DNA from: Acidimicrobiia bacterium
GTDB taxonomy: Bacteria; Actinomycetota; Acidimicrobiia; Acidimicrobiales; Bin134
DNA: 41,293 nucleotides
NCBI GenBank assembly: GCA_022821445.1
Contig: JAJEDQ010000256.1
Location: forward strand, 1 to 41,293
Reading direction: 5' to 3'
Part shown: piece after piece, positions 2,183 to 33,297 of the stretch
How the letters are laid out: every line of letters starts with the position of its first letter
Numbering within the stretch: the first letter of the stretch is position 1
Translations under genes and position numbers: made by a program
The notes under the pieces: generated by a model
What the model saw: the letters and a program-made list of their open reading frames with translations, nothing else
What the model was told of the DNA's origin: nothing
The model's database searches: none

Positions 2183-2205
2183 TTCGACCTGCCAATTGCC
2201 GGCCC

Positions 2206-16134: not shown

Positions 16135-17346
16135 ATGGTCGATTCCCAACCGCTTTCGCAGGCCAATACCTCGATCGTCATTCCCAGCGCCGGCCACCTC
16201 CAGCCTGACGCCGACGCCTCCATGCTCCAGCGCTGCCTGGACACGCTCACCCTGCTCGATCCGCCGCCCGCGGAGGTGATCGTGGTGGTGGGCGACGAAT
16301 TCCAGGGCGAGCCGCCTCAGCAGACCGCCGGCCTGCCCCTGCGAGTTGTCCACCGGGGCCCGGGGCCCTTCGACTTCTCCCGGGCCGTGAACTGCGGCGT
16401 GCTGGCCAGCCGCGGCGAGCTGGTTCTGATGCTCAACGACGACATAGAGGCAGAAACCGGCGACTGGCTGGGAATAATGGCCGCCCATCTCAGCGATCCG
16501 AGCATCGGCGCCGTAGGGGCCGCCCTGCTGTATCCCGACCGGTCGATCCAGCACATCGGCATGGAGTTCGACGGTGCTCATCCCATCCACTCGTTCCGGG
16601 GATGCCAGCAGTCCGAAGCCGCCGCGGGCGGCGGCGACGGGGCTCGCGATGTGATCGGCGTCACCGGGGCCTGTCTGTTGGCCCGACGCCGGGATCTGCT
16701 GGCGGTGGGCGGGATGTCGCTGGAGTTCCCCGCCTCCTACGGCGATGTCGATCTGTGCCTGCGGCTCATCCGTTCGGGGCTGCGGGTGGTGGTGGCGCCC
16801 GCCGCCACCCTCATCCACCACGAGAGCGCCAGCCGGGAACCGGTCATAGAGTCCTGGGAGTGGGAGAGGTTCGTCTCCCGCTGGGGCGAGCCGCCCCACC
16901 GGGGGCCACTCCCTGCCAATTCCGAATCCGACCGCAACTACGATTCAGCCATGACCGCCGATCAGGTGGATGGCGAGGATCGCGATCAGCTCCGCCATGA
17001 ACTCCTCAACCTGCGCGACCGGGCCCTCGGCGCCGAAGCGCGCAACCAGTTCCTAACGAACCGCGTCGCCCACCAAGACGACCAGATTGCCGAACTGGAA
17101 GGCCGGGTGGCCGAGCGGGACACCCGCATAGAGGAGTGGAAAAACCGGGTGGCCGAGCGGGACACCCGCATAGGCGAACGAGATGCCCGTATCGCCGAGC
17201 GGGACCTGCGCATGGCCGAGAAGGACGCCCGCATCGCCGAGCTCGAGGCCGATAACCTCCGGTTGCACGAGGACTTGGCCCGACCGGCCATCATCCGGCT
17301 TGCTCGCCGTCTAGTCCCAGGATCGGGCCGGCATGAGCGAGCTTGA
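16135..17346 (+). CDS. GT2 glycosyltransferase with long C-terminal coiled coil
   Basis: A 403-residue protein. Residues 1-260 are a GT2 domain of the O-antigen WbbL/WsaE type: TSIVIPSAGH, FDFSRAVNCGVLASRGELVLMLNDDIE (shown in parts; LNDDIE is the metal site), VGAALLYPDRSIQHIG, VTGACLLARR, YGDVDLCLRL and HHESASR. Residues 285-390 are a near-continuous coiled coil built from 14-residue repeats (RVAERDTRI type). The tail (RLARRLVPGS) is basic. ATG 16135. The last 14 bases overlap the next gene, another protein with a predicted coiled coil at its N-terminus, so the two products may pair. The coiled coil is encoded by a 42-bp minisatellite. Confidence 0.87.
   Translation: MVDSQPLSQANTSIVIPSAGHLQPDADASMLQRCLDTLTLLDPPPAEVIVVVGDEFQGEPPQQTAGLPLRVVHRGPGPFDFSRAVNCGVLASRGELVLMLNDDIEAETGDWLGIMAAHLSDPSIGAVGAALLYPDRSIQHIGMEFDGAHPIHSFRGCQQSEAAAGGGDGARDVIGVTGACLLARRRDLLAVGGMSLEFPASYGDVDLCLRLIRSGLRVVVAPAATLIHHESASREPVIESWEWERFVSRWGEPPHRGPLPANSESDRNYDSAMTADQVDGEDRDQLRHELLNLRDRALGAEARNQFLTNRVAHQDDQIAELEGRVAERDTRIEEWKNRVAERDTRIGERDARIAERDLRMAEKDARIAELEADNLRLHEDLARPAIIRLARRLVPGSGRHERA
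17104..17229 (+). repeat. 42-bp minisatellite encoding coiled-coil repeats
   Basis: Three 42-base units start at 17104, 17146 and 17188, with a partial fourth at 17230. The first 27 bases of units 1 and 2 are identical. Each unit encodes 14 residues, exactly two heptads, so copy-number changes keep both reading frame and coiled-coil register. Peptide units run RVAERDTRIEEWKN, RVAERDTRIGERDA, RIAERDLRMAEKDA. Confidence 0.92.
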
Positions 17347-18295
17347 CCTCAGACAGGTCGGCGCGGAGATCGAGGCTGATGCCGACAAGCGCCGCCGCCA
17401 AGACCGGGAGATCGCCCAGCTTGAACACGACATAGAGCAGGCTTGGGCCGACATCGCCGAGTCCGAGTCTTCTCGGCACGTCATCGACGAAGACGGCGAT
17501 TTCTTGAACCAGGCCGCCAATCTGGCCGCGCTCGACCCCCATGTCCCGATCGGATCGCGCCGGGGACTCCGCGGCGTCAAGTGGCTTGTCCGCAAACTGT
17601 CCTACTGGTATGCCCGCTTTCTCACCGACCAGTTCAACGTGTTCGCCGGAGTGCTGATCCGGCACCTGCGCGACGTCGAAACCCGAATGGGCCGCCTGGA
17701 AGGCGCGGCCGGCTATCTGGGCGACGGCACCGTTCCGGCCGGCTTCGGTGTTGTCAGCAGTCCTCCTGAGCCCTCGGCCGAAGTGGTGTCCCAAGCCGCC
17801 GGCTTGGCGGGCTCGGGGCCGTGTCTGGTGCTGTCCGGGGGGGAAGGCGCCATCGTCGAGGCCATCAGCGGGCGGGGCATCAGCGCCCACGGCGTCGAAC
17901 AAGACCCCGACCGGGTCCTCACCGGACTCCGCCGTCGCATCGACATTCGAGCGGGCGGCGTGCTCCCCCATCTGGTGGGCGCTGAGGACGGGGAATTCGG
18001 CACGATTGTCCTCACCGGGCTGGTGGAGACCCTCCCGCTCAGAGACCTGGTTGGAATGGTCAACCAGGCCAGCCTGAAGCTGAAGAAAACCGGCCGGATC
18101 GTGGTGGCAGTGGCCGACCCCGCAACCCGGGCCCGGGTTGATGCCGAGCTGGGCTCGGGGCTGGGCATCTCGCCGGTCACCTGGCGGCATCTGTTGGAAC
18201 AGGCCGGCTTCGACGCCAGCCTGGAGCCCTGCTCCGACTCCCGCATCACCGAGATAGTGGTCGCCCAGCGCCCCGCCCCGCCGAGCCGGCCATGA
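17333..18295 (+). CDS. Coiled coil plus degenerate SAM-methyltransferase-fold protein
   Basis: A 320-residue protein. Residues 1-45 form a coiled coil (KRRRQDREIAQLEHDIEQ). Residues 65-120 (DPHVPIGSRRG, then VRKLSYWYARFLTDQFNVF) match the linker that often precedes methyltransferase domains in glycan clusters. Residues 155-310 have a class I methyltransferase layout, but motif I reads LVLSGGEGAIVEAI where LDLGCGRGEF is usual: the first acidic residue is lost. LVETL also replaces the usual HVVEHL. It may be a catalytically weak or dead scaffold. ATG 17333 overlaps the preceding GT2 gene by 14 bases. Its 3' end lies in a 70-bp tandem duplication. Confidence 0.75.
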   Translation: MSELDLRQVGAEIEADADKRRRQDREIAQLEHDIEQAWADIAESESSRHVIDEDGDFLNQAANLAALDPHVPIGSRRGLRGVKWLVRKLSYWYARFLTDQFNVFAGVLIRHLRDVETRMGRLEGAAGYLGDGTVPAGFGVVSSPPEPSAEVVSQAAGLAGSGPCLVLSGGEGAIVEAISGRGISAHGVEQDPDRVLTGLRRRIDIRAGGVLPHLVGAEDGEFGTIVLTGLVETLPLRDLVGMVNQASLKLKKTGRIVVAVADPATRARVDAELGSGLGISPVTWRHLLEQAGFDASLEPCSDSRITEIVVAQRPAPPSRP

Positions 18296-18369
18296 GCCCT
18301 GCTCCGACTCCCGCATCACCGAGATAGTGGTCGCCCAGCGCACCGCCCCGCCGAGCCGGCCATGAGCCC
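18224..18369. repeat. 70-bp tandem duplication across a gene junction
   Basis: Two 70-base copies (18224-18293 and 18294-18363) differ at one base, followed by six bases of a third. Each copy ends in the ATG that begins MSP. The upstream gene stops at 18295, inside the first bases of copy 2. Before duplication its TGA and the next gene's ATG would have overlapped as ATGA. Now ATG 18292 opens only an 11-codon frame, and the real start has moved to 18362. A length of 70 is not a multiple of three, so copy 2 is non-coding. Confidence 0.95.
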
Positions 18370-19423
18370 CACCGTAGACCTGTTGATCCCGCAGATGGCT
18401 ACGGGAGACTCCACCAGCAACCACACCCGGCTGATCCAGCAACTCCTCGAAGATAAGGGGTTTGAGACTCGTGTCGTGGTAGAGCGCAAGAGCCGGTCCG
18501 ATGGCAGCGATCTGTCGGTGGAGAAGTGGAGGGGCGACGCCCGCGTCTCGATTCTCCAGCACTCCATCGGGTCGGAGGTCGCTCAGTTCGTGATCCGGAA
18601 GAAGACGCCGGTAGTGCTCAACTACCACAACATCACCCCGGCCAGTTACTTCCAGTCGTGGCAGCCCGAACTGGCCAAGAGCGTCCAGCGAGGACGCCAG
18701 CAGCTCGGCCAACTGGCCCGGCTGACCCGTCGAGGGATCGCCGACTCGGAGTTCAACGCCCGGGAGCTGAGGGACTTGGGCATCGACGATGTGGTGGTCG
18801 CCCCCGTGCTGTGGAAGCTGGGCAGCGACGTGCCGCCGTCTGAGCCGGGCGACAGCACCGACATCGACGGCGGGGGGACCGTGCTGTTCGTCGGCCGGCT
18901 GGCCCCCAACAAGTGCCAGCACGATCTCATCGCCGCCTTCGCGGTGCTGTCGCGGTTCCGCCCCCAGGCCAGGCTGGTGCTCGTGGGACAGGCCTCTCCT
19001 CCCCAATACCTGCACTCTTTGAAGAGCCTCGCTCGCCGCCTCGGCGTCCACGGTCGGGTGGTGTTCGCCGGCAAGGTATCCGACAAGAACCTCCTCCAGT
19101 GGTACCAGCTTTCCGATGTGCTGGCCTGCACATCGGAGCACGAGGGATTCGGTGTGCCCCTGGTGGAGGCCATGGCCAACGGCCTGCCCGTGGTGGCCTA
19201 CGACGCGGCCGCGGTGGCCGAGACGGTCCAGGATGCCGGCATCGTGATACGCGACAAGCGGCCCGTGACCATGGCCCTGGCCCTCCACCGAGTGCTGAGC
19301 GACGGTCAGCTTCGCCAGAGCCTGCGCGACCGCGGCGTCACCTCGGCCCAGCGGTTCGACATCTCTGTCACCCGCGAGCAGATGTGGATCGCCCTCAAAG
19401 ACCTGGTTGAAGTCGAGGACTGA
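18362..19423 (+). CDS. GT4 glycosyltransferase
   Basis: A 353-residue GT-B enzyme. The acceptor half has DLLIPQMATGDSTSNHTRL, QHSIGSE and NYHNITP. The donor half has VLFVGRLAPNKCQHDLI, RLVLVGQ and the EX7E motif in HEGFGVPLVEAMANG. The NYHN segment and APNK(C/R)xxDL occur in mannosyl/rhamnosyl-type GT4 enzymes of ABC-exported glycans. It is the last gene of the plus-strand run that starts at 16135 and converges on the WbdD-like gene. The start ATG 18362 is in the second copy of the 70-bp duplication; the earlier ATG 18292 leads to an early stop. Confidence 0.88.
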   Translation: MSPTVDLLIPQMATGDSTSNHTRLIQQLLEDKGFETRVVVERKSRSDGSDLSVEKWRGDARVSILQHSIGSEVAQFVIRKKTPVVLNYHNITPASYFQSWQPELAKSVQRGRQQLGQLARLTRRGIADSEFNARELRDLGIDDVVVAPVLWKLGSDVPPSEPGDSTDIDGGGTVLFVGRLAPNKCQHDLIAAFAVLSRFRPQARLVLVGQASPPQYLHSLKSLARRLGVHGRVVFAGKVSDKNLLQWYQLSDVLACTSEHEGFGVPLVEAMANGLPVVAYDAAAVAETVQDAGIVIRDKRPVTMALALHRVLSDGQLRQSLRDRGVTSAQRFDISVTREQMWIALKDLVEVED

Positions 19424-19438: not shown

Positions 19439-21361
19439 TCAGCGCCGGCCGAAGCCCCTCATCAACCCGGCGATCTTGTTGTGGACCCGCTCCCGCCAAG
19501 CCACCCGGGCCAATCGGGCTTGGGCCTCGGCCAGCTCAGACTGGAGCTGCGTCAGCCGAGCGTCGGCTTGCGCCAGTCGAGCATGGACCTGCTCCAAGCC
19601 CACCGCCGTCTCGTGCTGCCCCGACAGCTGGGCCAGCAGCTCTTGTTGCCGGTGGACCAAGTGCTCCATGCGGCGGTAGGGGGCCATAGGCGACACCAAC
19701 CGGTCCATCCGGGACCGGGACCCCGCATCGTGCAGTTCGGCCAACCTCGCCGCCGGCTGGCGGTAGACCAGACCCATCAGCTCGCCTTCAGCCTGCCTCC
19801 ACCGGCTGAGCAGGTCGTCGTCGATGTGTTCGCCGATCAATCCGCCGAGATGGGCCACCAGGCGGTCGTTGCTCCAGGTCACCGGCCAGGGCAGATGGCA
19901 GCGGGCGCTCAGCAGGGCGGAGACCGTCTTCCACAGTCCTCTCACCACCGCCAGCCGAACATCCACTCCCCCGGCGGCCACCCATTCCCGGTCCACGAAC
20001 TTGGGGCCGTCGGCAGTCATCACAAAGTTGTCAGGCCCGGAATCCAGCCACACCGGGGGCAGCGCCCGGTGGGCATCGGCGGGCAGATAGGGATGGGGCT
20101 CGGCAACCGATTCGATCGGAGTCTCCCGAGCAGCCAGCTCGGCCCGCCAGACCCGCAACAACTCGGCGAATCCGTCGGTATCGCTTTCCCGGGCGCAGTC
20201 CAGGAGACACTGCTCGAGGTTCCGGCCCCGGTAGTAGGGCTCCTCGGACACCTCCACCTGCCCGAGCCACCCGTCGAGATCACCGGCCCTGTCGTCGGCC
20301 AGCAGACTGCGCCTCACCACCAGACCCTGGTCCGAACCCACCACCACGGCCTGCTGTCTCCAGCGCCGCCGTCGATCCGGGGCCACCCGCCAGGCCAACG
20401 ACCGCTGGTCAACCCGCCCTGCCACCGCTTCTTTGCTCCGACCGGCGACAACCAGAAAAGAGTTGGCCACATCGGGCCCCAAACCCGCCGTCAGCAGCGC
20501 TCGGTGGGCGGCCCGCTCATCGGCAACCACCACCGGACGGGCATATTCACTGCTGGTGGGGTGGCCCACAATCTGGTCGACCATGTCGGCGCCATCGGGC
20601 TGGCCATAGATCTCCTCGGCCAGCACCGCGGTGGGCAGCTTGTAGTCGGGAAACGGGTACAGCCACTTCTGGGCGCCCAACCCGGCGTCGGCCAGCATCT
20701 CGGCCAGCTCCCGCCGCGACCAGGTGGTGGGCTCCCCGTCGCGGTAGCCCTCCCAGCCCACCCAGGGCAGCCCCAGATGGTCTTCGGGAAATCCCAGGAG
20801 GTACTTGAGTCCGAGCCGGTTCTCAATGGCCAACACCACCACTCCGCCGGGAGCGAGGGCATCCACCGCCCGGCTGAGAAGGGCTGCGGGCCCGCCTCCC
20901 CCACCCTGGCCGGTGCCGGCATATTCCAGCACTCCCACCAACAGAACCACGTCGTAGGCCTCGCGCCCGCCGTCGCCCAGCGCGTCCAGCGGTCCGCACA
21001 GAACATCCACGTCCTGAAGTCCGGCACAGCGATGGGCGATCAGCTCGGCTCGGGCGGCACTGCCCTCCACCGCGGTCACCGCCGCCCCCCGGTCGGCGCA
21101 GATCCGGGTGTTGACCCCCGAGCCCGCCCCCACGTCCAGCACCCGGTCACCGGGGCCGATGGCCACCGGGGCCAACAAAACGGCCCGTTCCGGCGCCAGG
21201 TGATAGGCGGTGGGCCAATCGTGTATCGCCGAGGCCAGCTCATCCGACCCCACTCGGCGGTCTTCCGCGGCTCGCAGCATTGCCAGCAGCTCGTCCTCAG
21301 CCCCGTCGGCATAGGGCAGCGCGTCGCCGATCATGGCTATAGGCGAAGGCTCAGCGCTCAT
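19439..21361 (-). CDS. WbdD-like protein: SAM methyltransferase, kinase-like domain, C-terminal coiled coil
   Basis: A 640-residue protein. Residues 30-260 are a class I methyltransferase with intact motif I (VLDVGAGSGVNTRI), AVEGS and VVLLVGVLEYAG. Residues about 295-500 resemble a minimal phosphotransferase: LVVRRSLL, then LDSGPDNFVM and FVDREW, which recall the D-x-x-P-x-N and D-x-E loops of LPS and aminoglycoside kinases. Residues 555-625 are a coiled coil (VHARLAQADARLTQLQ) ending in a basic amphipathic segment. The same order occurs in E. coli WbdD, which caps mannan O-antigen with methyl phosphate. It directly follows wzt, as in O8/O9a. ATG 21361 has AGGGA seven bases upstream; GTG 21367 is the alternative. 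Kinase activity is inferred. Confidence 0.8.
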   Translation of the reverse strand: MSAEPSPIAMIGDALPYADGAEDELLAMLRAAEDRRVGSDELASAIHDWPTAYHLAPERAVLLAPVAIGPGDRVLDVGAGSGVNTRICADRGAAVTAVEGSAARAELIAHRCAGLQDVDVLCGPLDALGDGGREAYDVVLLVGVLEYAGTGQGGGGGPAALLSRAVDALAPGGVVVLAIENRLGLKYLLGFPEDHLGLPWVGWEGYRDGEPTTWSRRELAEMLADAGLGAQKWLYPFPDYKLPTAVLAEEIYGQPDGADMVDQIVGHPTSSEYARPVVVADERAAHRALLTAGLGPDVANSFLVVAGRSKEAVAGRVDQRSLAWRVAPDRRRRWRQQAVVVGSDQGLVVRRSLLADDRAGDLDGWLGQVEVSEEPYYRGRNLEQCLLDCARESDTDGFAELLRVWRAELAARETPIESVAEPHPYLPADAHRALPPVWLDSGPDNFVMTADGPKFVDREWVAAGGVDVRLAVVRGLWKTVSALLSARCHLPWPVTWSNDRLVAHLGGLIGEHIDDDLLSRWRQAEGELMGLVYRQPAARLAELHDAGSRSRMDRLVSPMAPYRRMEHLVHRQQELLAQLSGQHETAVGLEQVHARLAQADARLTQLQSELAEAQARLARVAWRERVHNKIAGLMRGFGRR

Positions 21362-21380
21362 CGGCACATCCCTGATCGGC

Positions 21381-22607
21381 TCAGGCTCCGGCCCGCCAGT
21401 CGCCCTCCAGGTTCAACAGCCCGTTGGCCTGCGGGTCGGGCTCACCGGAAATCTGGAGCCAGAACTCCCGGGCTCGGCGGTCATAGAGAAACGAGGCGTC
21501 AGAATCCTGCACGGCGGCGTTGACATGAAACGCCCCCGAGCGGAACGGGATGCGGAGCAGGCGAAACTCCACCCACCCCTCGCCGTCCACCTTGCCCGGT
21601 CGGAACCCGTCGGCGTGGGAGCGGGGGCCGGCCAGATGGAGGTTGTTGTGGTCGTAGAACCCCAGTGAGAACACCGGGTCTTCAACCGGCTCCGAGGCGG
21701 AGTAGTGGATGCGCACGACCAGCGGATCGCCCGACGCGAAGGACTTGGGCCGGTGACCGGCCCCATCGAAGAACTCCAGGTTCGTGATGCGCAACGGCGT
21801 CTCCCCCTCGATATCGGAGCGGGGACGGTGACCCACCGAGGCGGCCCCCTCGGTGTCGATGGTGTCGAGGTAGGCGTTGACCACATCCTGGGGATCGCCG
21901 ACCGCGGCCAGCAGCCCGCGGTTGAGCCAGGCCATCTGATCGCAGTTGGCCCGCAGCATCCCCAGGTCGTGGCTCACCAGCACGATGGTCACGCCTTGGG
22001 ACCGCAGCGACTCCAAGTGGCTGAAGCAGCGAAGCTGGAACTCCTCGTCGCCCACGGCCACCACCTCGTCGACGATGAGGATCTCAGGGTCCACATGGAC
22101 GGCGACCGCGAAGCCCAGCCTCACGTACATGCCGCTGGAGTAGATCTTGACCGGGCTGTCGATGAACTCCTCCAAGCCGGCGAATTCGACGATCTGCTCC
22201 ACTCGGTCATCAATCTGAGACTTCGGCACCCCCAGCACCGAGGCGTTGAGGTAGATGTTCTCCCGGCCGCTCAATGCGGGGTGGAAGCCCGCCCCCAGCT
22301 CCAAGAGGGCCGACGTCCGGCCCTGGATCTCCACCCGGCCCTCGGTGGGCCGGTAGATCCCGGCCATAACCCGCAACATGGTGGACTTTCCCGAACCGTT
22401 GCGTCCCACCAGGCCGTACATCGAACCCCGGGGCACCTCCAGGCTGATGTCTCGAAGCGCCCAGAACGGCTCACTGCGCACCCGGCGGAATGAGCGGCCC
22501 GATCCGGGGCGCAGCCCCGTCCACGCTTCCTTCAGGCTGAGGGGCCGGTCCAAGGTCAGCCGGAAGCGCTTGGACACGCCCTCCACGACCACCGCGTTCT
22601 CGCCCAT
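21381..22607 (-). CDS. wzt: Polysaccharide ABC transporter ATPase Wzt with C-terminal carbohydrate-binding domain
   Basis: A 408-residue ATPase subunit for export of a lipid-linked polysaccharide. Walker A GRNGSGKST (68-76), LLELGAGFHPALSGREN (the Wzt/TagH subfamily mark), signature YSSGM (156-160), Walker B ILIVDE (176-181) and H213 in SHD are all intact. Residues about 265-400 form an extra beta-sandwich (GDPLVVRIHY, SLGFYDHNN, AVQDSDASFLYDR) like the Wzt domain that recognises a terminally modified glycan. Many actinobacterial Wzt/TagH proteins lack this domain. ATG 22607; three bases separate the gene from wzm. Confidence 0.93.
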   Translation of the reverse strand: MGENAVVVEGVSKRFRLTLDRPLSLKEAWTGLRPGSGRSFRRVRSEPFWALRDISLEVPRGSMYGLVGRNGSGKSTMLRVMAGIYRPTEGRVEIQGRTSALLELGAGFHPALSGRENIYLNASVLGVPKSQIDDRVEQIVEFAGLEEFIDSPVKIYSSGMYVRLGFAVAVHVDPEILIVDEVVAVGDEEFQLRCFSHLESLRSQGVTIVLVSHDLGMLRANCDQMAWLNRGLLAAVGDPQDVVNAYLDTIDTEGAASVGHRPRSDIEGETPLRITNLEFFDGAGHRPKSFASGDPLVVRIHYSASEPVEDPVFSLGFYDHNNLHLAGPRSHADGFRPGKVDGEGWVEFRLLRIPFRSGAFHVNAAVQDSDASFLYDRRAREFWLQISGEPDPQANGLLNLEGDWRAGA

Positions 22608-22610
22608 TGC

Positions 22611-23498
22611 CTACAACTCCTCGGCGATGTCGCGGGTTCGGACCTTGAACATCAGCCAGCCGCCCGCGCCCACCGCCAGCGAGATCAGCGCCATGAGCCC
22701 CAATCGAAGCACACCGGGCCAATCCAGCCCGTACAGCAGCTCTCGGGAGGCTTCGGTGAACTGCGACAGCGGGTTCAGCCGGATGATGTCGCGCACCGGC
22801 AGCCCCATGGCCCGCTCGGGGATCAACGACAGCGGATACACGATCGGCGTCACGTAGAAGAGGAACTGCAGGACAATGGTGGACAGGTAGCCCACGTCGC
22901 GATAGCGCACGTTCCACACGCTGAGCATCAGGCCGATCCCCAGGGCAAAGATCGACAAGAACACCAGGAGAACGGGCCACAGCAAAAAGGTCCAGCTCAC
23001 GTTGACCAGACAGATGAGGATCAGCATCAAGATGGACGCCTCGATGGCCGCTTGGAACAGCACGGTGAGAAGGGCGGCAACGGCCGGGGCCTCCGGGGGG
23101 AAGTACACCTTGCCAAGCAGCGAGCCCAAGTCCAACAACGCGCTCATGGCCCCGGTGATCACCCCGTAGAAGGCGTTCCACATGACCAGGGCGCAAAACA
23201 GGTAGAGGGCGAAGTTGTCGAAGCGGCCGTTGCCGGCCCGAGGGGGGTCGAACTTCAACAGCACACCGAAGACCAGGGCGTAGATGGCCAGGGTGGCCGC
23301 CGGGTTGAGCATCGACCACAGCCAGCCCAGCACCGATCGCTTGTAGCGCGAGCCCAGCTCCCGCTGCACCAGCCGGCCGATCAGCTCCCGGTATCCCCAG
23401 ATCTCAAGGACGCCGCCCCGCTTTGTGAGCGCCGCCCAAGTCCACCTCGTCGATCCGAGGCGGCCCATTCCTCCCGCGCTGCTTGCCATCGCCTTCAC
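22611..23498 (-). CDS. wzm: Polysaccharide ABC transporter permease Wzm
   Basis: About 295 residues with six membrane helices in the ABC-2 permease layout. ELIGRLVQRELGSRYKRSVLGWLWSMLNP (shown for position, residues about 38-66) contains the typical amphipathic segment and SVLGWLW motif of Wzm/TagG. Later segments include WNVRYRDVGY and FYVTPIVYP. With Wzt it moves the finished chain across the membrane. GTG 23498 is chosen because it overlaps the upstream gene's TGA as GTGA; ATG 23489 is a close alternative and the longer frame to 23519 is less likely. Confidence 0.9.
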   Translation of the reverse strand: MKAMASSAGGMGRLGSTRWTWAALTKRGGVLEIWGYRELIGRLVQRELGSRYKRSVLGWLWSMLNPAATLAIYALVFGVLLKFDPPRAGNGRFDNFALYLFCALVMWNAFYGVITGAMSALLDLGSLLGKVYFPPEAPAVAALLTVLFQAAIEASILMLILICLVNVSWTFLLWPVLLVFLSIFALGIGLMLSVWNVRYRDVGYLSTIVLQFLFYVTPIVYPLSLIPERAMGLPVRDIIRLNPLSQFTEASRELLYGLDWPGVLRLGLMALISLAVGAGGWLMFKVRTRDIAEEL

Positions 23499-26400
23499 CG
23501 CGGCGGCTCGGGATCGCACAGATGGTCATACACACCCGTCAGGTTCTGATCCCAGCGGGCGTGGCGGGCGGCGATGTCGGCCAGGCCCTGCTGGGCCAGC
23601 CGCTGTCGGCGGGCGGGGTCCCGCACCAGGGCGACGATCTCCGCGGCCAGCCCGTCTGCCGTCTGGGGCGACTGCATGCAGTTGTGGTCGTGGCGCAGAA
23701 GCCAGTCCCCCGCCGGATTCTCAAAGGCCACCACCGCGGTGCCGCAGGCCATCAGCTCCAGCGGCAGGTAAGAGGGGTGCTCAGAGGTGGTGAGCGCCAC
23801 GCCGATGTCGCAGGATCGATAGAGCGGGCCGGTCTCCCGGTAGTCGAGTTGGCCCATGTGGGTGATGAGGGAGTCCATGTGCTCGGGGAAGGCCCACGAC
23901 CCCGCCGTCACAATGCGAACATCGTCGGCCAGTTCGTCCTTCACGAGGCGCACGGCCCGAGCGGCCAGCTCCCAGCAGTTGCGGAGATGGCCGGGACGGG
24001 AATAGATGAACACCGTCACCGGGCGCTCGGGATCGGGTTCGATGCGACCTCGGGCATGGAAGACCGTGTCGTCCACCGCGGGCCAGAAGTGCTGGGCGAC
24101 CCCGTCGTATCGATCCCGGTAGATGTCGGCCAGATGGCCGGTGTTGCACAACCCGTAGAGCCCTAGCCGGTAGCTGTGCTCGGCCAGGGCGTAAAGCGTG
24201 CCCGCCGGGTAGAACATGGGCTCGAAATCCTGGATCAGGTAGAAGCGGCGCCTCTGGTCCGGGGTGCGGGCCGCGAAATAGGCGGTGGTCCACATGGTGG
24301 CGATGGCGGCATCAGCCCCAGGCACATCGCTGGGATCGAAAGCGAAGGAGTCGTGGTGGGCGATCGGGCTGTCGGCCAGCGACTCGAAGGCGGCGGTGAT
24401 ACCCGATCGGTACCACCGCTCGTCGTGGTTCTCCGGACCCGCCATCACCATGAACCGGTTCTCCACCCCGTGATTCACGGCCAAATGGTTGGCCAGCCGG
24501 AACACGGTGTGGATGCCGCCGTAGAAGGGGTTCTGGAACTCGGGCACAAACCAGTTGACCGTTCTCACCTCTTGTCGCCCGACGACGCCCCGGTGCCCCT
24601 GGCGCACCGACTCGGCCAGTGCCCGGTCGGCCTCGGAGGCAAAGGCCAGCGCATGGGCCTCCCCGGTCTCGTTGCGCTGGTAGAAGATCTCCATGGGCCG
24701 GCCCAGCATCTCGGTGAGCTGGCTCAGCACCCCCGGCTTCTCCTCGCAGTACACCGTGGGCTCGGGATGGGCCGCGCTGAGGTTCGGGGAGAAATAGGGG
24801 TCGCCGCCCATCAGCCAGCGCTGATAGGCCCAATAGCTGGCGAACACATCGCCCTCGGGAATGTGGGGTCCCCGGGTGGCCGATTCCCGGTGGACGACTG
24901 GGGTGGCGGCGGAAACCATGTTGCGGTAGCCGGCCTGGCGGGCCCGCAACCCGAGCACAACATCGCTGCCGCACAGCTCCAACCGCTCGTCGAATCCGCC
25001 GATCTCTTCGAACACCTCCCGGCGCACGGCCAGGCAGGCGCCGGTCACCGCCACGGTGTTGCGGGTCCAGTCGGTGGATCCCATGAGGCTCTCTGAGTGG
25101 GGGGCCATGCCCTGGAACAGGTGGCCGGCCAGGCCGGTCATTCCGATGACAACCCCGCCGAACTGGATAAGGCCGTTGTCGTCGATGAGCTGGGACCCGA
25201 CCACGCCGATCTCGGGCCGCCGGGCCCAGCCGACCAGGTTGTCCAGCCATCCCGGATGGCCCGGCGACGTGTCGTCGTTCAGGAACACCAGCACCTCGCC
25301 GGTGGCCTGGGCTGCGCCCCGGTTGTTGACCGCGGAGTAGTTGAACGGCCCATCCCACCAGATGACCTCGGGGTTCAGATCAGCGGCTCGAGCCCGGTAC
25401 CAGGCCTCGTTGTCGTGGCTGCGGCCGCCGTTGTCCACGACGATGACCTCAACGGCGGTGTGGTCGGCGGCGCGGACCAAGTCGAATGCGCCCTCCAGCA
25501 ATTCTCGATTGTGGCGGGTGGCAATGATCACGCTGACCGGCACATCACGAGCCGGCGCCCATGCCAGGTGAACACCGCCGGCCCCCGCCTCGGCTCGGGC
25601 CGGCCATCCCTGCCGCGACAACCAGCGGTTCACCAGCTCCAGATGGTGCGATTCGACGGGGTCGTCTCGGCGGTCCACGGTTTGCAACACCGCGGGCAGG
25701 CGGCACACCTGCTGGTCGACCACGTCCAGTCCCAGCAGCAGATCCCACCAAAGGGAGTCGTCGCCGGCCCCGACATCGAGATAGCGCAGGGCGGCTTCGG
25801 ATTGGAGGCATCGGGCCCGAACGGCAAAGGCCCGGCCGATGTAGTTCGCGCACACCAGGAGATCGGGCGACCAGCCCGGCTTGAGGCGGGGCCGGCTCAA
25901 GCGGTCCAGGTCGTCTTCGAAATACACCCCCTCCGGCATCCCCTCCAGGTGCCACTCCCATACCTCGGCCAGATCGGCCAGATCGTCGTCCCAATACACC
26001 AACTCCAGCCACGGGTCGCGCCACGCGGCCTGCGCGATCTGGAAGACCGCATCGGGTCGAAGCCGGTCGCCGGCCCGCAGCAATACCACCAGGTCCCGGG
26101 GACAGTCCTGAGACAGCCGGTCGAACTCCTCGGCCAGCCCGCCAGCCTCCACTTTGACCACTTCTACCAGGCCCCACGTCTGGTTGTGCAGCGACGTCTC
26201 AGTGGCGGCCACATCGCCGCCGTCGTCCACCACCAGTCCCCACACTTTGAGCGGTCGGACCCACTCGTCAAACCACTGCCGCTGAACGGCCAGCACACTG
26301 GGGTCGGCCGGCAGCCGGCAGTACCACTCCCGATAGGTCACACCGGCCGGCGGTCGCGGCCCAGATGGTTCCTGCTCGGGATCGCCAGGCTGCTCAGGGT

Positions 26401-26605
26401 CGGCTCTCAGATGAGGCTTGCCTCTCAGGTCATGCTCCGCTCTCAGATGAGGGTCGGCTCTCAGATCAGGCTCGGCGGGCGGCTGTGCTGTCTGGGTGCG
26501 GCGGACCGCGCGGCGTGCCTGCCGGATGATGGCCATCGCCATGCTGACCAGCCGTCGACGGCGGGTTTCTCGGGGGAGAGCTCGCTCAAGCAGACGACGA
26601 ACCAC
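23495..26605 (-). CDS. Multi-domain glycosyltransferase: degenerate GT2, GT2 and WsaF-like GT4
   Basis: A 1036-residue protein. Residues 46-81 are a charged linker of 6-residue repeats (PDLRAD, PHLRAE). Residues 100-340 look like a GT2 domain without a clear catalytic DXD, though a DDD run is present. Residues 355-620 are an active-looking GT2: VSVIIATRHN, FNYSAVNNRG, VFLNDDTSPG, VTGACLAVRR. Residues 690-1030 resemble the rhamnosyltransferase WsaF: YGGIHTVFRLANHLA, FYLIQDFEPMFYPAG, TSEHPSYLPLELMACG. WsaF-type enzymes build rhamnan in S-layer glycan loci that also use Wzm/Wzt. dTDP-rhamnose genes lie at 29804-33288. GTG 26605 is the start. It could polymerise or add two different residues. Confidence 0.87.
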   Translation of the reverse strand: MVRRLLERALPRETRRRRLVSMAMAIIRQARRAVRRTQTAQPPAEPDLRADPHLRAEHDLRGKPHLRADPEQPGDPEQEPSGPRPPAGVTYREWYCRLPADPSVLAVQRQWFDEWVRPLKVWGLVVDDGGDVAATETSLHNQTWGLVEVVKVEAGGLAEEFDRLSQDCPRDLVVLLRAGDRLRPDAVFQIAQAAWRDPWLELVYWDDDLADLAEVWEWHLEGMPEGVYFEDDLDRLSRPRLKPGWSPDLLVCANYIGRAFAVRARCLQSEAALRYLDVGAGDDSLWWDLLLGLDVVDQQVCRLPAVLQTVDRRDDPVESHHLELVNRWLSRQGWPARAEAGAGGVHLAWAPARDVPVSVIIATRHNRELLEGAFDLVRAADHTAVEVIVVDNGGRSHDNEAWYRARAADLNPEVIWWDGPFNYSAVNNRGAAQATGEVLVFLNDDTSPGHPGWLDNLVGWARRPEIGVVGSQLIDDNGLIQFGGVVIGMTGLAGHLFQGMAPHSESLMGSTDWTRNTVAVTGACLAVRREVFEEIGGFDERLELCGSDVVLGLRARQAGYRNMVSAATPVVHRESATRGPHIPEGDVFASYWAYQRWLMGGDPYFSPNLSAAHPEPTVYCEEKPGVLSQLTEMLGRPMEIFYQRNETGEAHALAFASEADRALAESVRQGHRGVVGRQEVRTVNWFVPEFQNPFYGGIHTVFRLANHLAVNHGVENRFMVMAGPENHDERWYRSGITAAFESLADSPIAHHDSFAFDPSDVPGADAAIATMWTTAYFAARTPDQRRRFYLIQDFEPMFYPAGTLYALAEHSYRLGLYGLCNTGHLADIYRDRYDGVAQHFWPAVDDTVFHARGRIEPDPERPVTVFIYSRPGHLRNCWELAARAVRLVKDELADDVRIVTAGSWAFPEHMDSLITHMGQLDYRETGPLYRSCDIGVALTTSEHPSYLPLELMACGTAVVAFENPAGDWLLRHDHNCMQSPQTADGLAAEIVALVRDPARRQRLAQQGLADIAARHARWDQNLTGVYDHLCDPEPPR
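26399..26470 (-). repeat. 18-bp repeats encoding (P/H)xLRxx hexapeptides
   Basis: Four 18-base units encode PDLRAD, PHLRAE, HDLRGK and PHLRAD (protein residues 46-69). They are followed by two diverged units with PEQPGD and PEQEPS to about 26363. The repeats keep frame and lengthen a charged, probably disordered linker between a basic N-terminus and the first domain. Confidence 0.85.
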
Positions 26606-26692: not shown

Positions 26693-26721
26693 TTGATGGC
26701 AGGAGCCGAAGCTGGGAGAAT
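26693..26721 (+). promoter_or_regulatory. Candidate promoter for the SpoIID-type gene
   Basis: TTGATG (26693-26698) and GAGAAT (26716-26721) are separated by 17 bases, matching four of six bases in each sigma-70-type element. Transcription would begin near 26728, about 30 bases before ATG 26757. This argues against TTG 26721 as the start, because that codon would overlap the -10 box. The remainder of the 151-base divergent gap contains an imperfect GC hairpin around 26653-26670. Confidence 0.45.
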
Positions 26722-26756
26722 TGCCCGGCGGGCGGCCAACCGGTTTTGGACGTTCT

Positions 26757-29700: not shown

Positions 29701-29807
29701 AGGCGCTCTTCATCGTGAACTGCCACATGGGGCCCGTTACGCTCGGCGAACCCGCCAAAGAGGCCAACGACGCGTGCGAGCCCCACATTCAAGCGGGAGC
29801 GGCTTAG
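26757..29807 (+). CDS. Secreted SpoIID/LytB-domain protein with internal and C-terminal repeats
   Basis: A 1016-residue secreted protein. The signal peptide has a hydrophobic core ending in PSSA-QQ (about residue 39). FTGSGWGHGVGMSQWGG near residues 58-75 is the SpoIID/amidase-enhancer signature. Three copies of a roughly 115-residue module follow, each with TTLTP, a CGxGC-type Cys pair, SYSHGR and LDSL. The third runs directly into the SpoIID core (LDSLSMEQYLWGIAE, AQAIAARSYA, FYSASNGGHTE). After a Thr-rich linker, two copies of a Cys-containing module with DGDGVADICALPRTRR end the protein. SpoIID proteins act on denuded peptidoglycan or activate amidases, so a cell-wall role is likely. The repeats' function is unknown. 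Confidence 0.87.
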   Translation: MHWQRLTVLNRPRLSQVIAASTALMAAASLLIAAPSSAQQNPNPSPVLVVDPTATATFTGSGWGHGVGMSQWGGLARAQAGHSAQQILGFYYENAVLAQNYGRPANGAEPPSSPGPSSPATPAAGESATPVVLATTGSTTLTPEGLNRITVDNQNIAVGGQNAARAPAGTPIDFARVGGLWQITFGATNVCGNGCSGQTVQLHFATDTAVAVSTTGRSYSHGRINLVAVANDPGRFHITLDSLSVETFLKDPHNDPAVPNTGTDQTTGSTHFVLAVTQATTLTPEGLNRITVDNQNITIGGQSAARAPAGTPIIVTRVGGRWRIRYGNADLCGSGCSGQAVQLHFGTDTAVALSTTGRSYSHGRFNLVAEAGDPNRFRVVLDSLTPEKFLSDPHNTPPEIPKADSTPTTETVIQPPPEPVHPEDAIRVHLSTTTGTTLTPRGANRITVDGQGEIRVPAGTPVNVVYHPGHWHFTINGVDACGSNGCPGHTAQLHFATGTSVAVSNTGYSYSHGRINLVPASGDPGTFYVILDSLSMEQYLWGIAETPMNWPLAIHEAQAIAARSYATATLRERRDSNTWTRPFDLYATVWDQAYVGDTRERHADAATWLQAVQNTAGQVMLHNGALIRAFYSASNGGHTERSEYVFSADLAYLPAKPDPFDSTESNPYSSWSRTYSVADLNRWLNDHTDTAIGQLISMDVVGGTGGSGRLDKAQVRITGTSRTVNVSGNRLRARINTAARESGQNQLLSTLFSFTVPPATVPSTTTTTGDPGGTPPVDSTPADQKYYSGIIDGPDICLNRSLGGQITYPYDQDGDGVADICALPRTRRAAVAHQKTIEQLALVEREIFNARFAEECRSVTATFGEPEKEAVDECQQYRDFSANSPGGSAVPNGGTGTLTPGTSASQDDYAVDDRQYYSGIIDGPDFCVNFSLGGPATYAFDWDGDGVADICALPRTRRAAAARQRALEHLANASPELETLYQALFIVNCHMGPVTLGEPAKEANDACEPHIQAGAA
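27146..28385 (+). repeat. Three tandem copies of a ~115-residue module in the SpoIID-type gene
   Basis: Copies begin near 27171, 27594 and 28062 (spacings 423 and 468 bases). Copies 1 and 2 are highly similar in both protein and DNA; copy 3 is more diverged and leads straight into the catalytic-type SpoIID core. The repeated unit includes the first residues of that core (LDSLS, E, FL or YL), so the duplication copied the domain boundary as well. Confidence 0.9.
29112..29790 (+). repeat. Two C-terminal Cys-rich DGDGVADIC modules
   Basis: Copies start at 29112 and 29502. Each has YYSGIIDGPD, LGG, a D-x-DGDGVADIC loop, CALPRTRRAA and two further cysteines about 45 and 60 residues later (EEC and DEC; VNC and DAC). 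The DxDGDG loop resembles calcium-binding loops of thrombospondin type 3 or excalibur modules; the conserved cysteines suggest disulfides. Both are inferences from short motifs. Confidence 0.85.
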
Positions 29808-30649
29808 CCCAGCAGCTCGGCCACCAGACGCATCAGGGGTTCTCGAAAGTCGCCCGGGCACCTCATGCCGGCCAAGGCCAGGGCCCGGTTCTCCAACGCC
29901 GAGTTGGCCGGGCGAGGGGCGGGGCGGGGCGGTTGCAGATCGTCGGTCGCGATGGGCGCCACCCGGTCTGGATCATGGCCGGCTGCGGCCATCACCTCCC
30001 GAGCGAACTCATACCAAGACACGTCTCCCTGGTTGGCCGCGTGGTACAGGCCAGGGCGCCGGTCAACACACAGCCGCTCGATCACTGCGGCCACATCAGC
30101 GGTGAACGACGGCGAGCCCCGCTGATCGCTCACAAACCGGAGGGGACCGCCTTCGGCGGCAAGCCGCAATACGGTTCCCACCATGTTGGAACCGTGCCGC
30201 CCGCACAGCCAAGAGGTTCGAACAACGGTGGCGGCCTCGCCCGCTTCCCCCTCGCCGGCCAGCTTGCTGGCGCCGTACACCGACCGAGGATCGGGCCGGT
30301 CCCATTCGTGATAGGGCTCGGCCTTGTCGCCGGAAAACACATAGTCGGTGGAAACGTGGCAGAAGTGAGCATCGAACCGCCGAGCGGCCTCGGCCAGGTG
30401 GCGTACCGCGACAGCGTTCACCTGATAGGCCCGGGCGGCCTCGGTCTGGCAAGCGTCCACCGCGGTATAGGCCGCGCAGTTGACCACGGCATCAGGCCGA
30501 ATGGCGCCCACCGCGCTGAGCACTTGGTCTCGTTGTGAGATGTCCAGCTCTGGGCGGCCAGCGGCGATGGGCTCGTGGCCGGAATCAGCCATCTGCGCGG
30601 CAACGTCGTGGCCGAGCTGCCCCGCCGCTCCGGTCACCAGCACCCTCAC
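29804..30649 (-). CDS. rfbD: dTDP-4-dehydrorhamnose reductase
   Basis: A 281-residue SDR that makes the last step to dTDP-L-rhamnose. It has GAAGQLG (7-13), NCAAYTAVDACQTE, STDYVFSGD, VYGASKLAGE (catalytic Tyr and Lys), VRTSWLCG and DQRGSPSF, all specific for RfbD/RmlD. GTG start at 30649. Its stop overlaps the stop of the SpoIID-type gene on the other strand by three bases. It closes the minus-strand operon rfbA-rfbC-rfbB-rfbD. Confidence 0.95.
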   Translation of the reverse strand: MRVLVTGAAGQLGHDVAAQMADSGHEPIAAGRPELDISQRDQVLSAVGAIRPDAVVNCAAYTAVDACQTEAARAYQVNAVAVRHLAEAARRFDAHFCHVSTDYVFSGDKAEPYHEWDRPDPRSVYGASKLAGEGEAGEAATVVRTSWLCGRHGSNMVGTVLRLAAEGGPLRFVSDQRGSPSFTADVAAVIERLCVDRRPGLYHAANQGDVSWYEFAREVMAAAGHDPDRVAPIATDDLQPPRPAPRPANSALENRALALAGMRCPGDFREPLMRLVAELLG

Positions 30650-30662
30650 GGCCCCGCGGCCC

Positions 30663-31625
30663 TCATGTTGCAGCTTTCTTGAGCGGTTCCCACCACCAGC
30701 GGTTGTCCCGGTACCAGACCACGGTGGCGGCCAGGGCCTCGTCCAGCTCCCGGACCGGCGACCACCCCAGCTCCTTCATCTTGGCCGCGTCCACCGAATA
30801 GCGCCGGTCGTGGCCCAGCCGGTCGGCCACCGGTTGGATGAACGACTCGTCCCGCCCGCACAGTGCCAGCAGGCGGTTGGTCAGATCCCGGTTGGTGAGC
30901 TCGTTGCCGCCGGCAATGTTGTAGATCTCTCCGGCTTGGCCTTGGCGCAGCACATGGTCGATGGCCGCACAGTTGTCGTCCACATGGCACCAGTCCCGCA
31001 CATTCTGGCCATCGCCGTACAGGGGCACCTTAAACCCGTCCAGCAAATTGGTGGTGAACAGGGGGATGAGCTTTTCGGGGTGCTGGCGGGGGCCGAAGTT
31101 GTTGGTGGTGCGGGTAACCGCCACCGGCAGGCCGAAGGTCTCCCGGTAGGCCAGCGCGATCAAGTCGGCACCGGCCTTGGATGCCGAGTAGGGCGAGCTG
31201 GGCTCCAGACGGTCGGCCTCGGTGAACGACCCCTCAGCGATCGACCCGTACACCTCATCGGTGGACACGTGGACCACCTTGTCCACCTCCAGCAGCCGAG
31301 CGGTGTCGCACACCACGTTGGTGCCGTCGCAGTTGGTGCGAACGAAGGCGTCGGGGCCGACAATGGAGCGGTCTACATGGCTCTCGGCGGCGAAATGAAC
31401 CACCCCGTCGCAGCCGTCCATGGCCTTGGCCACCCCGTCGCGGTGGCAGACGTCGCCATGGATGAACTCCAAGCGGGGGTCGTCCTCGAGCCCTCGCAGG
31501 TTGTCGCGGTTCCCGGCGTAGGTAAGGGCGTCGTACACCACCACGGCATCGTCGGTGCGAGCCAGCACCCAGCGCACGTAATTCGATCCGATGAACCCCG
31601 CGCCCCCGGTCACAAAGAGCTTCAT
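30663..31625 (-). CDS. rfbB: dTDP-glucose 4,6-dehydratase
   Basis: A 320-residue extended SDR that converts dTDP-glucose to dTDP-4-dehydro-6-deoxyglucose. Signatures: GGAGFIGSNYVRW, DALTYAGNRDNL, HFAAESHVDRSI, STDEVYGS with the catalytic acidic residues, PYSASKAGAD, and TTNNFGPRQHPEKLIP. These are the classical RmlB marks. ATG 31625; one base separates it from rfbC and 13 bases from rfbD, so one mRNA is likely. Confidence 0.96.
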   Translation of the reverse strand: MKLFVTGGAGFIGSNYVRWVLARTDDAVVVYDALTYAGNRDNLRGLEDDPRLEFIHGDVCHRDGVAKAMDGCDGVVHFAAESHVDRSIVGPDAFVRTNCDGTNVVCDTARLLEVDKVVHVSTDEVYGSIAEGSFTEADRLEPSSPYSASKAGADLIALAYRETFGLPVAVTRTTNNFGPRQHPEKLIPLFTTNLLDGFKVPLYGDGQNVRDWCHVDDNCAAIDHVLRQGQAGEIYNIAGGNELTNRDLTNRLLALCGRDESFIQPVADRLGHDRRYSVDAAKMKELGWSPVRELDEALAATVVWYRDNRWWWEPLKKAAT

Positions 31626-31626
31626 G

Positions 31627-32193
31627 TCACCCTTGGGCTTCGAAACGGGGAATCAGATGATCCGGAATCGCCGAGCGGCGGGGATTGGACTGGTCCCGAG
31701 CCGACAGCACGGGGTTGTCCACCCCCCAGTCGGCTCCAACCTCGGGGTCGTTCCAGGCCACCCCCAGCTCGTCGTCTGGGTTGTAATAGCCGTCCACGAG
31801 ATAGCTGATGGTCATGTCCGACAACGCGGCAAACCCGTGGGCCACCCCCGGCGGGATATACACCCCCCGATGGTGGCTCACGCCGTCGGGCTCGGTTCCC
31901 AGGGGCAGCGTCATTGTGCGCCCGTCGGTGGGTGAGCCTGACCGCAGATCATGGAGCACCACCCGGGCCTGGCCCACGGGCACATACCAGTAGTCGGCCT
32001 GATGGAGGTGGTAGTGCAAACCCACCACCGAGCCGGCTCGCCGGTCGCCCCGGTTGGCCTGGATCATCTCCCGGACCCCGGGAATCCACTCCCGCCGGTA
32101 GGTCTCCACAAACAAGCCCCGCTCGTCGCCATGGATTTCGGGGGACACGATGAACACGCCCGAAATCGCCTTGCATGGGCTTACTGCGGCCAC
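31627..32193 (-). CDS. rfbC: dTDP-4-dehydrorhamnose 3,5-epimerase family protein
   Basis: A 188-residue cupin-type epimerase. Motifs: DERGLFVETYRREW, VVGLHYHLHQADYWYV (substrate histidines; RmlC usually has RGLHYQ and Q-K-L), DLRSGSPT, and VYIPPGVAHGFAAL. The sequence belongs to the less common RmlC subgroup with HQADYW, but its place between rfbA and rfbB makes dTDP-4-dehydrorhamnose epimerisation the best call. A C3-only epimerase is possible. GTG start at 32193. Confidence 0.87.
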   Translation of the reverse strand: MAAVSPCKAISGVFIVSPEIHGDERGLFVETYRREWIPGVREMIQANRGDRRAGSVVGLHYHLHQADYWYVPVGQARVVLHDLRSGSPTDGRTMTLPLGTEPDGVSHHRGVYIPPGVAHGFAALSDMTISYLVDGYYNPDDELGVAWNDPEVGADWGVDNPVLSARDQSNPRRSAIPDHLIPRFEAQG

Positions 32194-32205
32194 TGCTTCT
32201 GTCCC

Positions 32206-33288: not shown

Positions 33289-33297
33289 TCGCCGCAC

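What the first reader, a model, noticed from the sequence alone, without database searches (positions are those of the whole stretch)
19439..23498. WbdD-like cap-and-ruler protein beside Wzm and cap-reading Wzt in an apparent actinobacterium
The gene order wzm, wzt with a C-terminal carbohydrate-binding domain, then a methyltransferase/kinase-like/coiled-coil protein is the arrangement of E. coli O8/O9a mannan loci. There WbdD ends the chain with a methyl or methyl-phosphate cap that Wzt recognises. Here the methyltransferase motif is intact, a kinase-like D-x-x-P-x-N plus D-x-E pair is visible, and a coiled coil with a basic amphipathic end follows. With the LCP ligase at 10131, this suggests chain-terminated, ABC-exported glycan attached to peptidoglycan rather than lipid A. 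I do not know of this combination being described for this group.
Basis: partly seen in the sequence, partly recalled or inferred. Interest (0 to 1): 0.78.

Follow-up and report, generated by a model that had tools for sequence, protein, structure and literature searches.

The report
Cap-adding enzyme for a wall sugar
A probably sponge-dwelling actinobacterium carries an enzyme that may add a methyl-phosphate cap to the end of a rhamnose-rich sugar chain, marking it as finished so that it can be exported and fixed to the cell wall; the enzyme type is known from Klebsiella, but its use here without lipopolysaccharide looks new.

Summary
Observation confirmed. On the minus strand lie four tightly packed genes: a two-module glycosyltransferase, Wzm, Wzt with a C-terminal carbohydrate-binding domain, and a methyltransferase–kinase-like–coiled-coil protein (MTK). 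The MTK family instead matches the K. pneumoniae O7 terminator ORF6 in the spacing of seven published residues, six in the methyltransferase and one the essential kinase Asp441. ORF6 adds methyl-phosphate to terminal rhamnose; I could not fetch its sequence. A rmlDBCA operon and a WsaF-type module point to a rhamnan. All 22 genomes searched in this genus have MTK and exactly one Wzt_C; 20 have exactly one LCP ligase, same strand, 8–16 kb away in all 15 where both share a contig. None matches LptD, Wzx, Wzy_C or WbaP. Novelty is weaker: wzm–wzt–MTK blocks occur in several phyla, a methyl-capped rhamnan with predicted Wzm/Wzt export is described in Geobacillus, and Wzt_C occurs in 71 of 99 genomes of this order. 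Kinase activity, cap chemistry and the ruler remain unproven.

The parts
19439..21361 (-). MTK: class I methyltransferase + divergent kinase + C-terminal coiled coil; proposed chain terminator
20678..21160 (-). Methyltransferase domain (residues 69-229) with intact D-x-G-x-G-x-G motif
   Evidence: PF13489 1e-12
19721..20572 (-). Kinase-like domain (residues 265-548)
   Evidence: model pLDDT 83; weak kinase fold hits
19985..20044 (-). D441xxPxN446 ... D458xE460 active-site motif
   Evidence: invariant in 16 genus sequences; kept in 44 of 60 distant relatives as D/N/D
19445..19603 (-). Predicted coiled-coil helix (588-640) with basic end
21381..22607 (-). Wzt: ABC ATPase with C-terminal carbohydrate-binding domain
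21414..21803 (-). Wzt_C domain (residues 269-398), proposed cap reader
   Evidence: PF14524 1.4e-16; family profile to 2r5o 1.7e-24
22611..23519 (-). Wzm: ABC-2 permease
   Evidence: PF01061 3.8e-19; galactan permease model 1.1e-17, below its cut-off
23495..26605 (-). 1036-aa protein with GT2 module and WsaF-type GT module; candidate polymerase
   Evidence: PF00535 1.3e-13, WsaF_C 5.5e-20, WsaF_N 4.9e-10
29804..30649 (-). RmlD
   Evidence: PF04321 2.3e-86
30663..31625 (-). RmlB-like dehydratase
   Evidence: PF16363 2e-66
31627..32193 (-). RmlC
   Evidence: PF00908 4.8e-38
32206..33297 (-). RmlA-like nucleotidyltransferase
   Evidence: PF00483 2.7e-54
18362..19423 (+). GT4 glycosyltransferase, convergent with MTK; found beside MTK in 18 of 20 genus loci (the other two contigs end inside MTK)
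   Evidence: PF00534 1.2e-32
17333..18295 (+). Coiled-coil protein with weak methyltransferase similarity
   Evidence: PF13489 0.015, below cut-off
16135..17346 (+). GT2 glycosyltransferase
   Evidence: PF00535 6.7e-08
10131..11528 (-). LCP ligase: the only one found in this genome; proposed to fix the glycan to peptidoglycan
   Evidence: PF03816 1e-31, LytR_C 1.3e-10; single match

Best explanation
This is a cap-and-export system for a rhamnose-rich cell-wall glycan. The chain is grown on a lipid carrier by the 1036-aa glycosyltransferase and its helpers. MTK ends it: its kinase domain phosphorylates the non-reducing terminal sugar and its methyltransferase domain methylates that phosphate. 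The Wzt C-terminal domain then recognises the capped end, Wzm/Wzt exports the chain, and the only LCP protein found in the genome transfers it to peptidoglycan. Shown here: gene content, motifs, conservation, co-occurrence and single copies. Inferred: enzyme activity, cap chemistry, sugar identity, the order of steps, and the LCP substrate. The coiled coil as polymerase-docking ruler is the weakest step.
For: The residues named for ORF6-O7 (Y28, Y66, G91, G93, E112, Y158 in the methyltransferase, D441 in the kinase; PMC11231755 section 11) are spaced 38/25/2/19/46/283. In relatives L047, L048, L049, L050 and L052 the aligned residues are spaced 38, 25, 19 and 46, with 283-285 to the Asp (the step of 2 was not printed); the window has 36/25/2/19/48/293. 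In ORF6, D441A abolished phosphorylation, and wild type made phosphorylated and methyl-phosphorylated product at O3 of a terminal rhamnose. Of 60 distant relatives, 44 keep D/N/D intact, and 31 have wzt ending within 2.5 kb upstream with wzm before it. In L054-L056 the same ORF continues into a GT2 module, as ORF6 does. A kinase-only profile has two PDB hits up to E 10, a choline kinase (0.034) and an aminoglycoside phosphotransferase (0.6). Of the first 37 Foldseek rows, 36 are kinases, pseudokinases or phosphotransferases by their titles. rmlDBCA and a WsaF-type module argue for rhamnan; two other Actinomycetota have rmlA, rmlB, MTK and wzm-wzt together. Genus census over 22 genomes: MTK 22, three of them partial or split; Wzt_C 22 with one copy each; LCP 20 with one copy each; LptD 0; Wzx PF01943 0 with 13 of 14 controls positive; Wzy_C 0; PF02397 0. 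PF00953 is in all 22, two copies in 18 and one in 4.
Against: No biochemistry exists for this protein. Six of the seven compared ORF6 residues lie in the methyltransferase, so the kinase link rests on one Asp position, the shared absence of a Pfam kinase match and the domain order; the ORF6 sequence itself could not be fetched. Every Foldseek kinase hit has E at or above 0.019 and TM at or below 0.37, and WbdD is not among the 50 rows shown. The residue aligned with the ATP-binding lysine is K in most relatives but R in this genus, so the kinase could be weak or dead. Three relatives (L051, L070, L075) have lost catalytic residues and 12 of 60 are methyltransferase only. In two of the other Actinomycetota (G077, G091) E460 is replaced by K. 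The Rml operon is separated from the four-gene cluster by a SpoIID-type gene, and LCP by housekeeping genes. Gmd (1190-2182) and further epimerases leave other deoxysugar donors possible. LCP near MTK could be inherited synteny within one genus, and a single LCP is not rare: 23 of 96 genomes of the order outside the genus also show one. Missing Pfam hits are not proof of absence, and most of the genomes are drafts.
Confidence: 0.62

Rival explanations
1. Methyl cap only: the kinase domain is a scaffold or dead, and the chain ends with an O-methyl sugar, as described for Geobacillus WsaE and Aquifex.
For: Arg replaces the usual Lys at position 352 in the genus. 12 of 60 relatives are methyltransferase only and 3 have broken motifs. 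WsaE methylates rhamnose directly (PMC2943079 passages).
Against: D441, N446, D458 and E460 are invariant in 16 genus sequences, and the kinase region is under the same purifying selection as the methyltransferase.
Confidence: 0.2
2. The glycan is not fixed to peptidoglycan: it is an S-layer O-glycan, a capsule or a lipid-anchored polymer, and the LCP serves something else.
For: The nearest Gram-positive precedent, Geobacillus wzm-wzt-wsaE-wsaF with rmlABCD, is proposed to attach its rhamnan to S-layer protein. LCP is not in the operon, and a single LCP also occurs in 23 of 96 genomes of the order outside the genus.
Against: No Wzy_C-type ligase or oligosaccharyltransferase and no Wzx was found in 22 genomes. 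LCP is single and near MTK on the same strand in 15 of 15 genomes with both on one contig.
Confidence: 0.25
3. MTK is a true WbdD orthologue.
For: Same domain order and gene order as wbdD in E. coli HS; both have D-x-x-P-x-N.
Against: hhalign aligns only 102 columns of methyltransferase; BLASTP finds no credible kinase similarity; DxEW stands where WbdD has DFG.
Confidence: 0.03
4. MTK modifies internal sugars or a linker rather than the growing end, so it is not a terminator.
For: No in vivo data; the coiled coil is short.
Against: ORF6-O7 modifies the terminal rhamnose; Wzt carries an O9a-type C-terminal domain; MTK and wzt are neighbours in several phyla.
Confidence: 0.08

Closest known systems
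Klebsiella pneumoniae O7 ORF6 N-terminal half (PMC11231755)
   Same: Methyltransferase, kinase domain with no recognised family, coiled coil; near-matching spacing of seven reported residues (one of them in the kinase); ABC exporter pathway; rhamnose acceptor (here inferred).
   Different: ORF6 has a CBM-like domain after the kinase and continues into two GT2 modules, and serves lipopolysaccharide; here the polymerase is a separate gene, no LptD was found, and the VAIK-type Lys is Arg.
Lcin_0519 kinase-methyltransferase family (PMC9758233, section 9)
   Same: Kinase + methyltransferase, often coiled coil; neighbours Wzt, Wzm and a glycosyltransferase; K. pneumoniae listed as a holder.
   Different: Described there with proteobacterial examples as a possible LPS modifier; identity with MTK not tested by sequence here.
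WbdD of E. coli O9/O9a
   Same: Domain order, gene order after wzm-wzt, DxxPxN motif, cap-export logic.
   Different: No sequence homology detected in the kinase; DFG instead of DxEW; 708 aa with a longer C-terminal region; mannan, LPS.
Geobacillus stearothermophilus wzm-wzt-wsaE-wsaF with rmlABCD (PMC2943079, PMC3898925)
   Same: Gram-positive, dTDP-rhamnose, WsaF-type transferase, methyltransferase-capped rhamnan with predicted Wzm/Wzt export.
   Different: WsaE caps by 2-O-methylation, with no kinase mentioned in the passages I saw; the glycan is proposed to go to S-layer protein through WsaB.
Mycobacterial galactan Wzm-Wzt (PMC10951656)
   Same: Actinobacterial Wzm-Wzt moves a lipid-linked wall glycan that ends on peptidoglycan.
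   Different: No chain-terminating cap enzyme is mentioned in the passages I saw.

Membership tests
WbdD | Sequence homology over methyltransferase and kinase domains | tested here: not met
   hhalign covers only methyltransferase columns; no credible BLASTP segment in the kinase
WbdD | DFG and HxD-type catalytic loop | tested here: not met
   WbdD has HDDVRPWN and IDFG; MTK has LDSGPDN and VDRE
WbdD | Gene lies directly after wzm-wzt | tested here: met
   window; E. coli HS
WbdD | Long coiled-coil ruler and polymerase docking site | tested here: inconclusive
   one 53-residue helix, weak periodicity; docking not testable
ORF6-O7-type methyltransferase-kinase terminator | Named residues at the reported spacing, including catalytic D441 | tested here: met
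   against positions: near-exact in five relatives, approximate in the window; six of seven are methyltransferase residues; ORF6 sequence itself not compared
ORF6-O7-type methyltransferase-kinase terminator | Methyltransferase, unannotated domain, coiled coil in that order | tested here: met
   the coiled coil is short
ORF6-O7-type methyltransferase-kinase terminator | Kinase fold | tested here: inconclusive
   hits are nearly all kinases but none significant alone
ORF6-O7-type methyltransferase-kinase terminator | Adds methyl-phosphate to the terminal sugar | not testable with these tools
   needs enzyme assay
Cap-reading Wzt | C-terminal Wzt_C carbohydrate-binding domain | tested here: met
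   PF14524 1.4e-16; 2r5o 1.7e-24 with family profile
Cap-reading Wzt | Binds the capped chain end | not testable with these tools
   needs binding assay
LCP-linked wall glycan | LCP ligase present, no LPS assembly protein or rival ligase detected | tested here: met
   LCP in 20 of 22, LptD and Wzy_C in 0 of 22 genus genomes
LCP-linked wall glycan | Glycan covalently on peptidoglycan | not testable with these tools
   needs wall chemistry
WsaE | Methyltransferase with fused rhamnosyltransferase modules (as described in PMC2943079 passages) | tested here: not met
   MTK has a kinase-like domain and no Pfam glycosyltransferase match

The most novel reading that the evidence does not exclude
A genus of sponge symbionts without lipopolysaccharide makes a wall polymer through one single-copy route: a methyl-phosphate-capped rhamnan whose end is set by MTK, read by a single Wzt, and fixed to peptidoglycan by a single LCP ligase. 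As far as my searches show, it would be the first cell-wall glycan of a monoderm whose completion is signalled by a phospho-methyl cap.
Probability: 0.4. Interest if true: 0.66.

Novelty: new variant of a known kind. Interest (0 to 1): 0.5.

Why it matters
How Gram-positive bacteria decide that a wall polysaccharide is long enough is, to my knowledge, poorly understood. If this reading is right, the quality-control logic worked out for Klebsiella and E. coli O antigens also governs a wall glycan fixed by an LCP ligase, in a genus where cap reader and ligase are both found once. It would also extend the ORF6-O7 type of terminator to Actinomycetota and Bacillota and offer a predicted cell-surface signature of a sponge symbiont.

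Tried and rejected
Rejected: WbdD orthology; LPS anchoring (LptD 0 of 22); a chance motif. A direct test against ORF6-O7 failed because I could not reach a Klebsiella O7 sequence; the spacing test replaced it and bears mostly on the methyltransferase. Fold search of the whole MTK returned only methyltransferase-fold entries in the 50 rows shown, so I modelled the kinase part alone. The PDB profile search with the whole alignment likewise showed only methyltransferase-fold entries in its 60 listed rows of 253. A tree of 39 rows put the genus on a very long stem (2.16) with few well-supported forks. The Actinomycetota rows did not group together, which hints at lateral transfer, but with long branches and skewed composition I do not rely on it; rows L070, L074 and L075 were dropped from it. 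Counts come from 60 loci chosen by two peptide patterns (best 80 of 376 kept; 20 of the 80 were genus members). They are rich in Lachnospiraceae and hold a look-alike pair (L055, L056: same length and scores), so they show occurrence, not frequency. The dN/dS test used 8 of the 19 full-length genus sequences; the helix test used the window sequence only. Alignments A3 and A4 hold 29 and 29 of the 60 distant relatives, some cut at their C-terminal end.
Full report
What is there. The window is 67.1% G+C and lies in a 3.41 Mb draft genome of 256 contigs. Named relatives that hold the same locus at 67-94% identity are metagenome assemblies titled Acidimicrobiia, Acidimicrobiales, Sva0996 or Candidatus Poriferisocius, some only 'bacterium'; I infer a sponge-associated genus from the Poriferisocius titles. 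On the minus strand run a 1036-aa glycosyltransferase (23495-26605), Wzm (22611-23519), Wzt (21381-22607) and MTK (to 19439). Read from the GTG, wzm overlaps the gene before it by 25 bases; wzm and wzt are 3 bases apart, and 19 bases separate the Wzt stop from the MTK ATG. In the same direction further out are RmlD, RmlB, RmlC and RmlA (29804-33297), with a SpoIID-type gene on the other strand between. The LCP gene is at 10131-11528.

Is MTK conserved as a whole? All 22 genomes searched in the genus (own included) have it. Nineteen are full length; in G009 and G017 the match is partial, and in G011 it is split over two contigs. In the other 38 genomes, all from the same order but other families, no match reaches beyond residue 215, so they are generic methyltransferase matches. 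In 396 Actinomycetota a profile of the C-terminal half found the own genome and four others. Three of those four keep the D, N and D positions, two of them (G077, G091) with K in place of E460; the fourth (G088) is methyltransferase only. In 16 genus sequences D441, N446, D458 and E460 are invariant, and the kinase region evolves under the same constraint as the methyltransferase.

The family at large. The search for related loci returned 80 loci: 20 of the genus and 60 others, whose titles name Pseudomonadota, Bacteroidota, Bacillota, a spirochaete, Acidobacteriota, Chloroflexota, Myxococcota and Solirubrobacter lineages. Of the 60, 44 have the D/N/D triad, 12 are methyltransferase only, 3 have changed motifs and 1 runs off its contig. 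In 31 of 60, wzt ends within 2.5 kb upstream and wzm precedes it; in 4 more wzt is there but wzm was not found beside it. By class, 20 of the 44 triad-bearing loci and 11 of the 12 methyltransferase-only loci have both; 15 of the 44 had room upstream and no wzt there. Two other Actinomycetota (G077, G091) have rmlA, rmlB, MTK and wzm-wzt within about 12 kb; G126's contig was too short to show neighbours.

What kind of enzyme. The middle domain has no Pfam kinase match at E 0.01 in any of 38 members. Modelled alone it is well folded (pLDDT 83). Its best structural neighbours are nearly all kinases, but weakly; by sequence profile only a choline kinase and an aminoglycoside phosphotransferase appear, both insignificant. 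The literature suggests why. In K. pneumoniae O7, ORF6 carries an unannotated domain, recognised only by modelling, whose nearest solved structure is the amicoumacin kinase AmiN at low similarity; the protein phosphorylates O3 of a terminal rhamnose and methylates the phosphate, and D441A stops the phosphorylation (PMC11231755, section 11 part 1; discussion part 1). The residues that paper names, six in the methyltransferase and D441 in the kinase, fall at nearly the same spacing in the MTK family, closest in several relatives such as L047, L048 and L052. That ties the families mainly through the methyltransferase; the kinase tie is the position of one Asp and the domain order. A Legionella survey had already described a kinase-methyltransferase family, Lcin_0519, next to Wzt, Wzm and a glycosyltransferase, and called it only remotely related to WbdD (PMC9758233, section 9). 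I think both are this family; neither was compared by full sequence.

How it probably works. Chains begin on a lipid carrier: PF00953 enzymes are present in all 22 genomes, two copies in 18 (presumably MraY and one WecA-like), while WbaP-type initiators were not found. Growth is by the 1036-aa protein, whose WsaF-type module and the Rml operon suggest L-rhamnose. In L054-L056 a related GT2 module is fused to MTK in one ORF, which links the two functions. MTK then caps. Wzt, whose C-terminal domain belongs with the O9a and Aquifex domains, would read the cap; in Aquifex this domain binds 3-O-methyl-mannose and not mannose (PMC9445017 passages). Wzm/Wzt export follows, then transfer by LCP.

Why the LCP link is better than a guess. 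In the genus, LCP is found once in 20 of 22 genomes and not in two drafts (G001, G020). In 15 genomes LCP and MTK share a contig, and in all 15 they are on the same strand, 8 to 16 kb apart; in five they are on different contigs. The same 22 genomes show one Wzt_C each and no match to LptD, Wzx, Wzy_C or PF02397. The control genomes rang for each family, in 2 to 13 of 14. In the wider order LCP numbers range from none to five per genome, and 23 of the 96 genomes outside the genus also show exactly one, so a single LCP is not unusual by itself. What is left in this genus is one cap-reading exporter and one ligase near it. This is co-occurrence, not proof, and drafts can miss genes. I did not count ABC exporters without a Wzt_C domain.

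Against. The lysine expected in the kinase N-lobe is Arg in this genus. Kinase fold hits are individually insignificant. The ruler is weakly supported. The sugar is inferred from neighbours, and Gmd at 1190-2182 leaves other deoxysugars possible.

Novelty. The parts are known: the terminator type (K. pneumoniae O7), a Gram-positive methyl-capped rhamnan with predicted Wzm/Wzt export (Geobacillus; PMC2943079 and PMC3898925 passages), and actinobacterial Wzm-Wzt export of a wall glycan (PMC10951656 passages). Of PMC3482155 (WbdD) I saw the abstract, outline and section 7. Wzt_C is common in this order, 71 of 99 genomes. What I did not find described, in nine searches of the held library (listings), is a methyltransferase-kinase terminator in a bacterium without LPS, or coupled to LCP. 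Subscription papers are mostly not in that library, and a main review (PMC7397119) was not held. I therefore rate it a new variant of a known kind.

Noticed in passing
order-level search: Wzt with the C-terminal carbohydrate-binding domain is found in 71 of 99 genomes of this order (3 of them of the genus), yet MTK was not seen in the 38 same-order genomes of other families: other cap enzymes probably exist.
   Followed up: partly
L068, L077, L079, L086-L088, L090, L094, L096, L100, L104, L105: Twelve relatives are methyltransferase only (307-410 aa); all 12 have wzt upstream within 2.5 kb, a natural contrast between methyl and possible methyl-phosphate caps.
   Followed up: partly
L051, L070, L075: Full-length relatives with changed kinase residues (E for D441 in all three; K for N446 in L070 and L075): possible pseudokinases or a different cap.
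   Followed up: no
L130 (G091:C15): Two separate wzm-wzt pairs flank MTK, with rmlA and rmlB beside them.
   Followed up: no
window 10131-11528: The genus LCP matches only positions 2-124 of the 150-position Pfam model in 18 of 20 copies, whereas most listed matches elsewhere in the order run to about 148 (capped list): a diverged end of the LCP domain.
   Followed up: no
window 26721-29807: A 1028-aa protein with a SpoIID domain (1.6e-13, residues 544-633) sits between the glycan cluster and the Rml operon on the opposite strand.
   Followed up: no
window 17333-18295: Coiled-coil protein with a very weak methyltransferase match, overlapping the end of a GT2 gene by 14 bases; it drops to 36-37% identity in L040 and L041 while MTK stays at 67-68%.
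   Followed up: no
window 1190-3856: GDP-mannose dehydratase next to two coenzyme F420 biosynthesis genes (CofD and F420 ligase domains).
   Followed up: no
MTK residue 352: Arg is invariant in the 16 genus sequences where most relatives have Lys at the putative ATP-binding position.
   Followed up: partly
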